Source of the DNA: Leifsonia sp. Leaf336
GTDB taxonomy: Bacteria; Actinomycetota; Actinomycetes; Actinomycetales; Microbacteriaceae
DNA: 64,000 nucleotides
Assembly (NCBI RefSeq): GCF_001423695.1
Contig: NZ_LMOZ01000001.1
Location: 1,436,443-1,500,442 of the forward strand
Direction: 5' to 3'
The number at the start of each line of letters is the position of its first letter. Position 1 is the first letter of the stretch. The position numbers and the translations under genes were made by a program. The notes under the pieces were generated by a model. It was given only the letters and a program-made list of their open reading frames with translations. It was not told the DNA's origin and made no database searches. This document shows positions 18,014-26,157 of this stretch, one piece after another.

Positions 18014-18014
<1 letters not shown>
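16839..18014 (+). CDS. carA: Carbamoyl-phosphate synthase small subunit
   Basis: Glutamine-hydrolysing subunit that channels ammonia to CarB. At 391 residues it is standard. The N-terminal domain ([29 protein letters not shown]) is followed by a class I amidotransferase with the nucleophile Cys in [12 protein letters not shown] and the catalytic His-Glu in [16 protein letters not shown] 16839 is preceded by GGGAGG at 7 bases and follows the previous stop by one base. The last base of its stop codon is the first base of the carB ATG. Confidence 0.97.
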
Positions 18015-21291
<3,277 letters not shown>

Positions 21292-21295
<4 letters not shown>

Positions 21296-22173
21296 CCGAC
21301 GGCACGGCCACCGCAGCCGCCTCGTTCGGCGACCGCCTCGCTGGCGTGTTCGCCGAGCGCGGGCGGCTCTGCGTCGGCATCGACCCGCACGCGCACCTGC
21401 TGGCGGACTGGGGGCTGGACGCCTCCGCCGCCGGGCTGCGGGAGTTCGGCCTGCGCACGGTGGACGCCGCCACGGGCGCGGCGGGCATCGTCAAGCCGCA
21501 GGTCGCGTTCTTCGAGCGCTTCGGTTCGGCGGGCTACGCGGCGCTGGAGGACGTGATCCGCGCAGCGCGCGAAGCCGGCCTGCTCGTGATCGCCGACGCC
21601 AAACGCGGTGACATCGGCACGAGCGTCGCCGCCTACGCCGAGTCGTGGCTCACCCCCGGCTCTCCGCTGGAGGCCGACGCCCTGACGGTCGCCGCGTTCC
21701 AGGGCGTCGGCTCCCTCGCCGAGCCGATGCGGCTCGCGGAGGAGACCGGCAAGGGCCTGTTCGTGCTCGCCGCGACCTCCAACCCGGAGGCCGCGGCCGT
21801 GCAGCAGGCGGTCGTCGCCGACGGAGCGCGTGCCGGGATGACCGTGGCGCGTGCGATCATCGAAGACGTGCACGCGTTCAACCAGGCTCAGCCTCCGCAT
21901 CCCTTCGGCACGGTCGGCCTGGTGCTCGGCGCCACGGTCGCGCTCGGCGACTACGGCATCGACACCGCGGTCGCGATCGAGCCGGCCTTCCCGGTGCTCG
22001 CGCCCGGGTTCGGGCACCAGGGCGCGCGGGTCGACGACGTCGACCGGCTCTTCGGCGCGTACGCGCCCGGAGTGATCGTGAGCGAGTCCCGCGGCCTCCT
22101 GAGCGCCGGCCCGCACGGGCTGGCCGACGCGGTCGCGCGCCGCGCGGAGGAGGTGCGCGCCAGCCATGGCTGA
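21292..22173 (+). CDS. pyrF: Orotidine 5'-phosphate decarboxylase (type 2)
   Basis: Decarboxylates OMP to UMP. The active-site Lys/Asp array is seen in [17 protein letters not shown], together with the N-terminal [12 protein letters not shown] and the phosphate-binding PGFGHQGAR. Length (293) and sequence fit the longer type 2 subfamily used by mycobacteria and other actinobacteria. GTG 21292 overlaps the carB stop by 4 bases. The last 8 bases overlap the start of the next gene, gmk. Confidence 0.95.
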
Positions 22174-23128
22174 GCCCCAGTCCGCATCGGCTCGACCGGC
22201 CTCGACGCGACCCGCATCGGTCCGGCCGGCGCCTCCCGAGGTCGACCGCGCAGCGGCGTCCGCCGCCGCCGTCGCCGCCCGGCGGGCGCGCGCCGCCGTG
22301 AAGAACGCGATCGCCGCGCGCGAGATCTCGCCGCTGGTCGTCCTCGACCACGCGACCGCCGCCCCCGGCGGCGTCGAGGGTCGCCTCCGCGTCACCGAGT
22401 TCCTGCTCAGCGTCCCCGCGATCGGGACGACCAAGATGCAGGAGGCCCTGCAGAAGCTGGCGATCTCGCCGGCCAAGCGCCTCGGCGGCCTCGGCCGCCA
22501 TCAGCGTCTCAAGCTGCGCGAGTTCCTGATCGAGCGCGAGAACAAGGTCGGCCGGCGCCGCAACCAGCTCGTTGTCCTCGCCGGGCCGTCCGCGGTCGGC
22601 AAGGGCACGGTCTCGACCTACATCCGCGAGAACTACCCCGATGTGCTGCTCTCGGTGTCGGCGACGACCCGGGCGCCGCGGCCCGGCGAGGTCGACGGCG
22701 TCAACTACTACTTCGTCGACGACGCCGAGTTCGACCGCATGATCGCGGAGGGCGAGCTGCTGGAGCACGCCACCGTGCACAACGCCTACCGCTACGGAAC
22801 TCCGCGCGCCCCGATCGAGGACGCGCTGGAGCAGGGCAGGAGCGTGCTGCTCGAGATCGACCTCCAGGGCGCGCGCCAGGTGCGCGAGTCGATGCCGGAG
22901 GCCCGGCTCATCTTCCTGCTGCCTCCGACGTGGGAGGAGCTGGTCCGCCGGCTCATCGGCCGGGGCACCGAAGACGCCTCCGAGCAGCAGCGCCGGCTGG
23001 AGACCGCGAAGGTCGAGCTGGCCGCCCAGGACGAGTTCGACTACCGGGTCGTCAACCACACGGTCGCCGAGGCCGCTCGCGAGGTCGTAGACTTGATGAA
23101 GGTCCGCTCGGCGCCGTCGCGCCCGTAG
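22166..23128 (+). CDS. gmk: Guanylate kinase fused to an N-terminal mIHF-like domain
   Basis: The C-terminal half (residues 135-320) is guanylate kinase (GMP to GDP), with P-loop [11 protein letters not shown] at 138-148, the GMP-binding [17 protein letters not shown], and the lid segment [14 protein letters not shown]. The N-terminal 130 residues are not part of the kinase. After a Pro/Ala/Ser-rich linker, residues 35-120 match the mycobacterial integration host factor fold: a basic helix ([13 protein letters not shown]), [20 protein letters not shown], and [18 protein letters not shown] (helix-two-turn-helix). mihF and gmk are separate neighbours in mycobacteria (Rv1388-Rv1389); here they share one frame. 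No ATG, GTG or TTG codon lies in frame between residue 91 and the kinase, so a separate kinase start is unlikely. It overlaps pyrF by 8 bases. Confidence 0.92.
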
Positions 23129-23219: not shown

Positions 23220-23480
23220 ATGGCAACCAGCAACAACGGCATCATCGACCCGCCCATCGACGACCTCCTGGCTCGCGTCGAGTCCAAGTACGCGCTCGTC
23301 ATCTTCGCCTCCAAGCGTGCGCGCCAGATCAACGACTACTACGCCGACCTCCACGAGGGCAGCCTGTTCGACAACGTCGGCCCGCTGGTCGACTCCTCGG
23401 TCGACGACAAGCCCCTGTCGGTGGCGCTGCACGAGATCAACGAGGACAAGCTCGTCATCAAGCCCCTCGCCGCGGAGTAA
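23220..23480 (+). CDS. rpoZ: RNA polymerase omega subunit
   Basis: An 86-residue omega subunit that helps assemble RNA polymerase by holding the beta-prime C-terminus. The conserved core [26 protein letters not shown] is present, as is an actinobacterial C-terminus ([18 protein letters not shown]). ATG 23220 is preceded by an AGAGAGGG ribosome-binding site. It stands between gmk and coaBC as in most bacteria. The 91-base gap to gmk contains two small hairpins, so transcription may be partly re-set here. Confidence 0.97.
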
Positions 23481-23609: not shown

Positions 23610-24905
23610 GTGAGCCCACGATTGACCATCGTCGTCGGAGTGACCGGCGGCATCGCCGCGTATAAGGCCGTCGGAGTCATCCGCGCGCTGGTCCTCGAAG
23701 GGCACTCCGTCCACGTCGTCGCGACGGAGGCCGCGCTGCGGTTCGTCGGCCGCCCGACGCTCGAGGCGATCAGCCGCAACCCGGTGGCGACCGACCTCTA
23801 CGAGGGCGTCGCCGAGGTGCGTCACGTGGCCATCGGCCAGTCCGCCGACCTCATCGTCATCGCCCCCGCGACCGCCAACACGCTCGCGAAGCTGGCGGCG
23901 GGTCTCGCCGACGACCTGCTGGGCAACACCGTTCTGGCCTCCACGGCGCCGCTCGTCGTGGCGCCGGCGATGCACACCGAGATGTGGCGCAATCCTGCCA
24001 CCGTCGCCAACGTCGCGACGCTCCGCAGCCGCGGCGTCACCGTGGTCGGTCCCGCCTCCGGCCAGCTCACCGGGGCCGATTCCGGCCCCGGCCGCATGGA
24101 GGAGCCCGACGTGATCGTGCGGGCCGCACTGCGCGCCGCGGGGATCTCGCCGCGTCTCGCCGTCTCGGCCGTCCCCGAGCCGGTCGCCGACGTCGTCGTG
24201 CTCTCGGAGCGTCGGCGCGCGAACGAAGCGTCGCGGCTGCCGCGTGGAGGCGTGGACCTCGCCGGCAAACGCATCGTCGTGACGGCGGGCGGCACGCGCG
24301 AGCCGCTCGATCCCGTGCGCTTCCTCGGCAACCGATCCAGCGGGCGCCAGGGCGTCGCCGTCGCCGCAGCGGCGCAGGCGCGCGGCGCCGACGTGGTGCT
24401 GATCGCCGCGCACCTGGAGGTCGACCCTCCCGAGGGCGTCGAGGTCGTCGAGGTGCAGACGGCGCTCGAGCTCCAGGAGGCGGTGACCGAGGCGGCGAGA
24501 TCGGCCGATGTCGTCGTGATGACGGCCGCGGTCGCCGATTACCGTCCCGCGGTCACTCGCGACAGCAAGATCAAGAAGTCCGAGGCGGGCGACACGCTGA
24601 GCATCGACCTGGTCGCCAACCCCGACATCCTCGCCGGGCTCTCGTCGGAGCGCCGCGACGGCCAGGTCGTCGTGGGGTTCGCGGCCGAGACCGAGCCGGA
24701 CCCGTCCACGCTGATCGAGCTCGGGCGCACCAAGCTCGCCGCGAAGGGCAGTGATTTCCTGGTGCTCAACCAGGTCGGCTGGGAGCAGGGCTTCGCAACG
24801 GAGAGCAACGAGGTCGTCGTGCTGCGCAAGGGCGGCGATATAGTGATGGAGGCCTCGGGGAGCAAGCTGTCGGTGGCCGACCGTATCCTCGACGTCGTCG
24901 TCTAG
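23610..24905 (+). CDS. coaBC: Bifunctional phosphopantothenoylcysteine synthetase/decarboxylase
   Basis: Catalyses two steps of coenzyme A synthesis. The N-terminal CoaC flavoprotein (about residues 1-180) shows [13 protein letters not shown], the catalytic His in EVRHVAIG, and PAMHTEMW. The CoaB half starts near residue 215 ([22 protein letters not shown]) and carries the dimer motif [13 protein letters not shown] and LVLNQVGW. At 431 residues the fusion is standard. GTG 23610 follows a GGAGGAGA ribosome-binding site. Confidence 0.96.
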
Positions 24906-24963: not shown

Positions 24964-26157
24964 ATGGCAGATCTGCGCCTCTTCACGTCCGAGTCGGTCA
25001 CCGAGGGTCACCCGGACAAGATCTGCGACCAGATCTCCGACAGCATCCTCGACGCGCTCATCGCGGTCGACCCGCACAGCCGGGTCGCGGTCGAGACGCT
25101 GGTCACGACCGGTCTGGTGCACGTCGCGGGCGAGGTGACGACCAACGGCTACGTCGAGATCCCCGCGCTGGTGCGCGAGAAGATCGTCGAGATCGGCTAC
25201 GACTCGTCCGACGTCAGCTTCGACGGCACCCAGTGCGGCGTCTCCGTCTCGATCGGCGCCCAGTCGCCCGACATCGCTCAGGGCGTGGACAATGCGCTCG
25301 AGTCGCGCGCCGAGCAGAGCGTCGACGACCTCGACCGGCAGGGTGCGGGCGACCAGGGCATCATGTTCGGCTTCGCCACCACCGAGACGCCGCAGTACAT
25401 GCCGTTGCCGATCTGGCTGGCCCACCGGTTGGCCGAGCGGCTCGCCGCCGTGCGCAAAGACGGCACGCTCGACTACCTCCGGCCCGACGGCAAGACGCAG
25501 GTGACGATCGGCTACGAGGGCTACACGCCGCGGTCGGTCGAGACCGTCGTCCTCTCCACGCAGCACGCGCCGCACGTCTCCAGCGAGCAGCTGCAGGCCG
25601 AGGTGATCGAGGAGGTCATCGCGCCGGTCATGCACGCCGCCGGGCTCGAGACCGCGCACATCCGCACGCTCATCAACCCGACCGGACGGTTCGAGATCGG
25701 CGGCCCCAAGGGCGACGCCGGCCTCACCGGCCGCAAGATCATCGTCGACACCTACGGCGGCGCGAGCCGTCACGGCGGCGGGGCGTTCTCGGGCAAGGAC
25801 CCGTCGAAGGTCGACCGCTCGGCGGCCTACGCGATGCGCTGGGTCGCGAAGAACGCCGTCGCAGCAGGCCTCGCCGACCGGCTGGAGGTGCAGGTGGCGT
25901 ACGCGATCGGCAAGGCGGCGCCTGTCGGGCTGTACGTGGAGACGTTCGGCACCGGCACGGTTCCGGACGACCGGATCATCCGCGCCATCCGCGAGGTGTT
26001 CGACCTGCGCCCGGCGGCCATCGTGCGCGACCTCGATCTCCTCCGGCCGATCTACGCGCAGACGGCGACCTACGGCCACTTCGGCCGCGAACTCCCCGAC
26101 TTCACCTGGGAGCGGCTGGACCGCGTCGACGACCTGCGCTCCGCCGCAGGGCTCTAG
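24964..26157 (+). CDS. metK: S-adenosylmethionine synthetase
   Basis: Makes SAM from methionine and ATP. The signature loops are complete: [32 protein letters not shown], and [19 protein letters not shown]. At 397 residues it is the normal length. ATG 24964 follows AAGGAGAAC. The 58-base gap from coaBC is too short for a SAM riboswitch. It neighbours priA, as in other actinobacteria. Confidence 0.98.

What the first reader, a model, noticed from the sequence alone, without database searches (positions are those of the whole stretch)
22166..23128. mIHF nucleoid-protein domain fused to guanylate kinase
The 130-residue N-terminus of this Gmk matches mycobacterial integration host factor (mIHF): a basic helix, then a helix-two-turn-helix ending [11 protein letters not shown]. 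mihF and gmk are separate adjacent genes in mycobacteria; here a single frame runs through both, with no ATG, GTG or TTG codon between residue 91 and the kinase P-loop. A nucleoid-binding domain tied to the GMP-to-GDP enzyme could localise nucleotide synthesis to DNA or make DNA binding respond to GMP. The kinship is seen in sequence; the functional coupling is inference. It may be lineage-wide and simply annotated as long Gmk.
Basis: partly seen in the sequence, partly recalled or inferred. Interest (0 to 1): 0.78.

Follow-up and report, generated by a model that had tools for sequence, protein, structure and literature searches.

The report
DNA-architect domain fused to guanylate kinase
Across a family of soil and plant bacteria, and apparently independently in small lake bacteria, a DNA-folding protein has become the front part of the enzyme that turns GMP into GDP, which hints at a physical link between chromosome organisation and guanine-nucleotide supply; what the link does is untested.

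Summary

The fusion is a family trait (80 of 80 named loci fetched; 11 of 199 family genomes lack the domain). It also occurs in 39 of 44 genomes of a lineage that is almost surely freshwater acI and in both genomes of a third genus. The kinase tree rejects one origin (AU p = 0.006); the short IHF-domain trees do not.

In Microbacteriaceae the linker is short, length-conserved and poor in start codons, so one polypeptide is likely. The domain keeps fold, charge and most basic signature residues, but evolves about twice as fast as the kinase and has lost one arginine. Best reading: a guanylate kinase with a built-in nucleoid tether; DNA binding and coupling are inferred. I found no paper describing it in the held library.

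The parts
22166..23128 (+). mIHF-Gmk fusion gene, 320 aa, single frame
   Evidence: only NF041260 match in the genome
22146..22153 (+). Shine-Dalgarno-like GGAGGAGG, 12 nt before the ATG
   Evidence: read directly
22166..22231 (+). N-terminal tail, residues 1-22, poorly conserved, lower pLDDT
22232..22249 (+). PPEVDR motif, residues 23-28; P23, P24, V26, D27 and R28 at least 90% conserved in 68 fused family members
22244..22522 (+). mIHF/sIHF-type H2TH domain, residues 27-119 (NF041260); structural match to sIHF-DNA 6bek over residues 32-122
22475..22507 (+). [11 protein letters not shown], residues 104-114, counterpart of RRxRGLGxxQ in standalone mIHF; third Arg replaced by Gly107
22532..22564 (+). 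linker, residues 123-133, net charge +3, no start codon; the model has one helix 111-129 running into it
22565..23098 (+). guanylate kinase domain, residues 134-311; P-loop residues 140-147 at 22583-22606
21292..22173 (+). pyrF (start inferred), overlaps the fusion gene by 8 nt
   Evidence: TIGR02127 249.8 bits on 21349-22170; overlap read
23220..23480 (+). rpoZ, RNA polymerase omega, next gene downstream
   Evidence: TIGR00690 67.6 bits
23610..24905 (+). coaBC
   Evidence: TIGR00521 385.8 bits

Best explanation
The gene makes one polypeptide: a normal guanylate kinase carrying, on a short linker, the genome's only actinobacterial IHF domain. It arose when the adjacent operon genes mihF and gmk fused; the same happened, most likely independently, in the freshwater acI lineage and in one more genus. 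The N-terminal H2TH domain most likely still binds DNA (or structured nucleic acid) non-specifically and so holds Gmk on or near the nucleoid, next to transcription that consumes GTP; it replaces the standalone nucleoid protein in a modified, less abundant and partly dispensable role. Shown: single frame, both domains, predicted folds, no second mIHF in the genome, family-wide distribution, occurrence in other lineages, absence of the domain in some genera. Inferred: translation as one chain, DNA binding, nucleoid location, lower abundance, benefit of proximity.
Against: The IHF domain evolves faster after fusion: median dN(IHF)/dN(Gmk) 2.04 in Microbacteriaceae against 0.81 in standalone order relatives (dS near saturation, so only the ratio is used); identity 0.54 against 0.68 at equal Gmk identity. 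The basic residue at position 107 is gone in 119 of 120; basic residues at 34, 50 and 88 are also mostly lost, 73 in about half. 11 of 199 family genomes lack the domain. IHF-domain trees do not reject one origin: p 0.84 with the held tree scoring higher, p 0.29 in a more careful tree without 9 long rows. The neighbour control is loose: in separate-gene loci gmk-rpoZ is a median 72 nt apart and pyrF ends a median 219 nt before the IHF match, further than mihF and gmk, and pyrF was not found next to it in acI. Codon adaptation gives no sign of nucleoid-protein-level expression (0.643 for the fusion, small reference set). In acI, start codons are enriched in the linker (12 of 30 with ATG against 6.3 expected), so two products are possible there. 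pTM 0.65 leaves the domain arrangement open.
Confidence: 0.47

Rival explanations
1. The fusion is a near-neutral by-product of losing the stop between two adjacent, nearly overlapping genes. The two domains work independently as beads on a string: mIHF activity and Gmk activity just share a chain and a promoter.
For: mihF-gmk adjacency is tight: 13 of 53 separate loci have the two in the same frame, median 48 nt between domain hits; in the 5 separate acI loci the mihF stop lies at or close to the gmk start; many matches elsewhere in the order and phylum span both domains with one stop inside. acI genomes are streamlined, with under 5% non-coding DNA (PMC5301498, passages). The neighbours that never fuse are also further apart. 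The acI linker is predicted with low confidence at 106-109.
Against: The fused state was kept across most of the family (76 of 78 genus groups have a match, one of them only a marginal one) with a length-conserved linker. In Microbacteriaceae pyrF overlaps or lies close to the fusion and stays separate in 121 of 121 loci.
Confidence: 0.29
2. The domain no longer acts as a nucleoid protein; it became an accessory N-terminal domain of Gmk (stability, oligomer contact, RNA or ribosome contact).
For: Relaxed and shifted constraint, no basic residue at 107 in nearly all fused sequences, new conserved R33, R93, R114 and the PPEVDR motif in Microbacteriaceae, absence of the domain in some genera.
Against: Fold and most basic signature residues kept, net charge about the same; acI fused domains stay close to the standalone type (26 of 29 solo-conserved residues kept; 82-134 bits; 49% identity and 0.8 A to sIHF).
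Confidence: 0.15
3. A guanine-nucleotide-gated nucleoid protein: GMP, GDP/GTP or (p)ppGpp binding to the kinase domain changes how the mIHF domain holds DNA, linking starvation signals to nucleoid state.
For: Recurrent fusion of these two functions; one helix runs from the H2TH domain towards the kinase in the window model. That (p)ppGpp inhibits Gmk in some bacteria is recalled; the title of PDB 4qrh names such regulation.
Against: No direct evidence; pTM 0.65-0.67 shows no defined interface; the linker sequence varies and in the acI model it is not helical.
Confidence: 0.13
4. Two proteins are made from the gene by internal initiation or by cleavage, so the fusion is only on paper.
For: In acI 12 of 30 loci keep an ATG in the linker, above expectation. 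Cleavage was not testable.
Against: In Microbacteriaceae linker start codons are depleted (80 of 118 have none against 31.8 expected) and none exists in the window gene between codon 91 and the P-loop.
Confidence: 0.1

Closest known systems
mIHF (Rv1388, M. tuberculosis) and sIHF (SCO1480, Streptomyces coelicolor), actinobacterial IHF, NF041260
   Different: Those are ~105-aa standalone proteins; here the domain is fused to Gmk, diverged (67 bits; standalone order relatives reach 149 bits, the weakest there about E 1e-30), has G at the third Arg of RRxRGLG, and is the only copy.
Bacterial guanylate kinase (Gmk, TIGR03263; M. tuberculosis Rv1389, 1s4q)
   Different: Standard bacterial Gmk lacks the ~130-residue N-terminal nucleic-acid-binding domain (general knowledge).
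S13-like H2TH domain (Pfam PF22525 H2TH_5)
   Same: The H2TH core of the N-terminal half is over the Pfam cut-off.
   Different: Ribosomal S13 binds rRNA (recalled); here the domain sits in an mIHF-like fold on an enzyme.

Membership tests
Actinobacterial IHF (NF041260) | Profile score over curated cut-off | tested here: met
   67.1 bits, cut-off 60
Actinobacterial IHF (NF041260) | mIHF/sIHF fold | tested here: met
Actinobacterial IHF (NF041260) | Position directly before gmk and rpoZ | tested here: met
   rpoZ next downstream; 118 of 123 fused family loci show both pyrF and rpoZ, the other 5 show one of them
Actinobacterial IHF (NF041260) | Three basic residues in RRxRGLG | tested here: not met
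   K104 and R105 kept, position 107 is G; basic in 43 of 50 standalone, 1 of 120 Microbacteriaceae fused, 0 of 29 acI fused. A common trait, since 7 of 50 standalone proteins lack it too, not a criterion of the curated model
Actinobacterial IHF (NF041260) | Standalone protein of about 105 aa | tested here: not met
   one frame of 320 codons; the NCBIfam model is of type equivalog_domain, so the domain can still belong: I file the domain, not the whole protein, in this family
Actinobacterial IHF (NF041260) | Binds and bends or compacts DNA, abundant nucleoid protein | not testable with these tools
   needs binding assays and imaging; codon adaptation inconclusive
Guanylate kinase (TIGR03263) | Profile score over curated cut-off | tested here: met
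   218.8 bits, cut-off 160.45
Guanylate kinase (TIGR03263) | P-loop and GMP-binding residues, Gmk fold | tested here: met
Guanylate kinase (TIGR03263) | GMP to GDP activity | not testable with these tools
   needs enzymology

The most novel reading that the evidence does not exclude
mIHF and Gmk are one functional unit throughout Actinomycetota, and the recurrent fusions are its signature: a nucleoid-bound guanylate kinase whose grip on DNA is set by guanine-nucleotide state (GMP/GDP/(p)ppGpp), so that purine supply or the stringent response directly remodels the nucleoid. In most actinobacteria the same coupling would run through a complex of the two neighbouring gene products.
Probability: 0.12. 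Interest if true: 0.88.

Novelty: new variant of a known kind. Interest (0 to 1): 0.6.

Why it matters
A nucleoid protein that is essential in M. tuberculosis appears, across a large family of soil and plant bacteria, only as the front end of a central purine enzyme, and the same fusion recurs in abundant freshwater bacteria. Recurrent fusion of the same two genes is Rosetta-stone evidence, though not proof, that the two proteins act together. It makes a testable prediction for standalone relatives (mIHF and Gmk should interact) and offers a natural experiment: genera that kept the genes apart, fused them or dropped the domain.

Tried and rejected
Artefact, sequencing error or chance frame: rejected, since 80 of 80 named loci from separate records carry the same fused frame. 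A second mihF elsewhere: not found. Second NF041260 matches in 7 family genomes: five are ribosomal protein S13 by sight, one an ABC-transporter-like frame, one (L142) a distant IHF-like fragment not followed. Two class genomes with long frames at a standalone IHF match, G699 and G852, were read: genes separate. Horizontal transfer of one fused gene between acI and Microbacteriaceae: disfavoured by the kinase tree (AU p 0.021 for Microbacteriaceae plus acI-fused, 0.0065 for all fused), not excluded by the IHF domain (quick tree p 0.84, with the held tree 26 log units better than the free one; careful tree of 76 rows p 0.29 for all fused and 0.57 for Microbacteriaceae plus acI-fused). In that careful tree the f45 fusions group with a separate f45 gene (99/96). 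In the kinase tree the separate acI genus g271 lies among fused acI (support 81), so acI may have had two fusions or one re-separation. Codon adaptation as a proxy for abundance: inconclusive. dN/dS: dS near saturation, only ratios used; some single pairs exceed 1 (maximum 1.16); acI gave 7 usable pairs (ratio 2.56) and is not interpreted. Further fusions: among the listed rows of order-wide (396 genomes) and phylum-wide (296 genomes) searches, every match outside the family that spans both domains carries at least one stop; neither list was complete.

Rows dropped: one search lost 2 of 100 fused loci (L140, L141, motif not found); one search kept 67 representatives; one search's P-loop pattern missed 27 of 32 acI/f45 loci and its linker count was replaced; one search used 118 of 121 Microbacteriaceae loci and 30 acI loci; one search left out 9 of the 85 rows (L135, L140, L141, L238, L240, L244-L247). 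One search's 158 fused loci, and the counts, include four pairs from one genome each (L001/L167; L211/L229; L223/L231; L218/L232).

Literature: no paper in the held library holds mIHF together with guanylate kinase (0) or all four terms (0); ten hold 'guanylate kinase' and 'integration host factor', and by titles and abstract starts none concerns this fusion; searches added none. PMC6155035: abstract and passages seen; PMC3724605: one passage; PMC5301498: passages including part of Table 1; all others: search listing only. The paper at doi 10.1093/nar/gkt095 is not held, so the DNA contacts of sIHF could not be checked.

Full report
What is there. The window holds carA (to 18014), carB (18014-21295), pyrF (about 21292-22173), the fusion gene (22166-23128), rpoZ (23220-23480), coaBC (23610-24905) and metK (24964-26157), all on the + strand. 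The fusion gene starts with ATG 12 nt after GGAGGAGG and overlaps pyrF by 8 nt. Its 320-aa product matches actinobacterial IHF at residues 27-119 (67.1 bits, cut-off 60) and guanylate kinase at 134-311 (218.8 bits, cut-off 160.45), Pfam H2TH_5 and Guanylate_kin, and among solved chains first mIHF 6tob and sIHF 4itq/6bek. No in-frame start codon lies between codon 91 and the P-loop at residue 140.

Only copy, and a family trait. The window's genome has one NF041260 match, the fused one. One search found 162 related loci in named genomes and kept the best 80; all 80 are fused. The selection favours relatives of the query; 79 titles name genera or a family that I recognise as Microbacteriaceae (from memory), one says only Actinomycetota bacterium. 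In 199 genomes of the window's family (f1), 190 have a match; every match in the listed part (down to E about 1.5e-18) lies in an open frame of 283 codons or more. Nine have none, and two more (G011, G187) match only at E 9e-4 and 2e-4. In all eleven the gmk region has pyrF and rpoZ but no IHF domain. In ten of them the pyrF match ends 2-49 nt before the gmk match, so the IHF stretch is simply missing; in the eleventh (L134) the pyrF match is partial and 835 nt away. They belong to three genus groups (g10, g12, g64), which suggests at least two losses. In none of the genomes that I looked into was there an intact separate mihF; the second matches in seven genomes are mostly ribosomal S13. In the 36 family genomes the best match spans both domains (one, G286, is cut by a contig end); eight of these matches include a stop, and in the six of them that I have as DNA (L176-L180, L183) both domains lie in one open frame.

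Elsewhere the genes are separate, with two exceptions. In 396 genomes of the order, 350 have the IHF match, standalone proteins reaching 149 bits against at most 83 in the family. The 29 order loci outside the family for which I had both domains (best-scoring ones) have them in separate open frames. A search of the same 396 genomes with the fusion profile lists no match outside the family that spans both domains without a stop (list not complete). In a class-wide search (393 genomes), however, fused frames appeared in family f39 and in genus g244 of family f45. A count over chosen genomes gave for f39 39 of 44 with the IHF match in a 290-336 codon frame and 5 of 44 (g262, g271, g273) in 106-123 codon frames; for f45 2 of 19 in frames of 302-303 codons, 10 of 19 in frames of 104-190 codons and 7 of 19 without a match. 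DNA of 30 f39 and 2 f45 fused loci confirmed both domains in one frame, and DNA of the 5 f39 and 7 f45 separate loci confirmed separation. f39 is almost surely the freshwater acI lineage: contigs of 1,353,947, 1,456,516 and 1,506,415 bases match the 1.354, 1.457 and 1.506 Mbp of strains IMCC25003, IMCC26103 and IMCC19121 in Table 1 of PMC5301498; no tool names it. A phylum-wide search (296 genomes) lists no further fusion (list not complete).

Separate origins. On a tree of 104 kinase domains, the fused acI sequences sit with separate acI sequences, the two fused f45 sequences are sister to a separate f45 sequence (support 95), and most Microbacteriaceae form their own group (support 90), with the reduced-genome members placed apart on long, weakly supported branches. 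Holding all fused sequences (with the family members that lack the domain) together is rejected (lnL 79.7 lower, AU p 0.0065), as is Microbacteriaceae plus fused acI (p 0.021). The ~100-residue IHF domain does not reject one clade of fused domains: p 0.84 in a quick tree, where the held tree scored higher, and p 0.29 in a careful tree without nine long rows, where Microbacteriaceae plus fused acI scored 2.4 log units higher than the free tree (p 0.57) and acI fused plus separate did not form a group (p 0.195 for holding them together). Both the kinase tree and the careful IHF tree put the f45 fusion with its own separate relative. So the f45 origin is well supported as separate; the acI origin rests on the kinase tree and on the presence of separate genes in sister genera.

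Why this junction. mihF and gmk are neighbours with a median 48 nt between domain hits, in the same frame in 13 of 53 separate loci; in separate acI relatives the mihF stop lies at or close to the gmk start. Few changes would fuse them. gmk and rpoZ share a frame in 0 of 226 loci, and pyrF and the next gene in 0 of 172, but in separate-gene loci these neighbours are further apart (median 72 and 219 nt), so this control is suggestive only. The tighter part of it is that pyrF, which lies close to or overlaps the fusion in the Microbacteriaceae loci measured, stays separate in 121 of 121 loci.

One chain or two. In 98 fused family loci the distance from GLGxxQ to the P-loop is 24-28 residues in 92. 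Start codons in the linker are far below what each gene's own codon use predicts: none in 80 of 118 loci against 31.8 expected, ATG in 6 against 31.6 (linker amino-acid make-up may explain part of this). In Microbacteriaceae one polypeptide is therefore likely. In acI start codons are above expectation (none in 4 of 30 against 11.7; ATG in 12 against 6.3), so an internal Gmk start may survive there.

Has the domain kept its function? Of 29 positions conserved in 50 standalone sequences, the commonest residue is the same at 21 in 120 Microbacteriaceae fused sequences and at 26 in 29 acI fused sequences. R28, R39, R42, K46, K104 (R in standalone) and R105 are kept, and the net charge of the domain is about the same (median +8 fused, +9 acI fused, +7 and +8.5 standalone). 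Mostly lost in Microbacteriaceae: basic residues at 34, 50, 88 and 107, partly 73; gained: 33, 93, 114. Position 107, the third Arg of RRxRGLG, is non-basic in 119 of 120 Microbacteriaceae and 29 of 29 acI fused sequences and, read by eye, in both f45 fused ones, against 7 of 50 standalone; three of those seven are acI relatives, so in acI the change may precede fusion. By the alignment, positions 104, 105 and 107 correspond to residues 85, 86 and 88 of the sIHF chain; I could not check their contacts. The domain evolves faster than the kinase after fusion (dN ratio 2.04 against 0.81) and is less conserved at equal kinase identity (0.54 against 0.68), but is on the whole still constrained (median dN/dS 0.42, with dS near saturation and a maximum of 1.16).

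Mechanism. I take the most likely reading to be a bifunctional protein in which a modified mIHF domain tethers Gmk to the nucleoid. mIHF depletion is lethal in M. tuberculosis and the protein is among its ten most abundant (PMC6155035, abstract and passages); a 1:1 fusion to an enzyme, and the absence of the domain in some genera, suggest that in Microbacteriaceae it no longer carries the full architectural duty. Nucleotide-gated DNA binding is possible and would be the most consequential version; nothing here tests it.

Known or new. The domain model in NCBIfam is of type equivalog_domain, so curators allow for multidomain proteins, and the gene is presumably annotated as a long Gmk (not checked). 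In the held library I found no paper that describes the fusion. I rate it a new variant of a known kind: two known families in a combination that I did not find described and that recurs.

Noticed in passing
L123, L126, L127, L130 (family genus g12): Where the IHF domain is missing, the pyrF match ends 2 nt before the gmk match begins, so pyrF and gmk probably overlap.
   Followed up: partly
L134 (G064, family genus g64): No IHF domain, only a partial pyrF match 835 nt upstream, and a long low-complexity in-frame stretch before the kinase.
   Followed up: no
L142 (G192 contig 1, about 450,869-451,063): A distant mIHF-like fragment (28.8 bits) in a 326-codon frame of a genome that also has the fusion; possibly a phage-type IHF.
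   Followed up: no
order family f4 (e.g. L154-L163) and genus g107 of f17 (L151, L153): No f4 genome appears among those with an mIHF match; the f4 and g107 loci read have gmk without an IHF domain in frame, so mIHF is absent from more than one actinobacterial lineage.
   Followed up: partly
G013 (family genome, contig of 927,303 bases): A strongly reduced family genome still has an IHF-domain match (E 9.7e-16), whereas 1.3-1.7 Mb relatives g10 and g12 lack it; whether it is fused was not read.
   Followed up: no
alignment position 107 (window residue G107): The third Arg of the RRxRGLG signature is missing in nearly all fused sequences of three lineages and in 7 of 50 standalone proteins.
   Followed up: yes
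L209, L210, L212, L215, L224-L227 (acI): The acI linker often keeps an in-frame ATG 16 codons before the P-loop, perhaps the old gmk start.
   Followed up: partly
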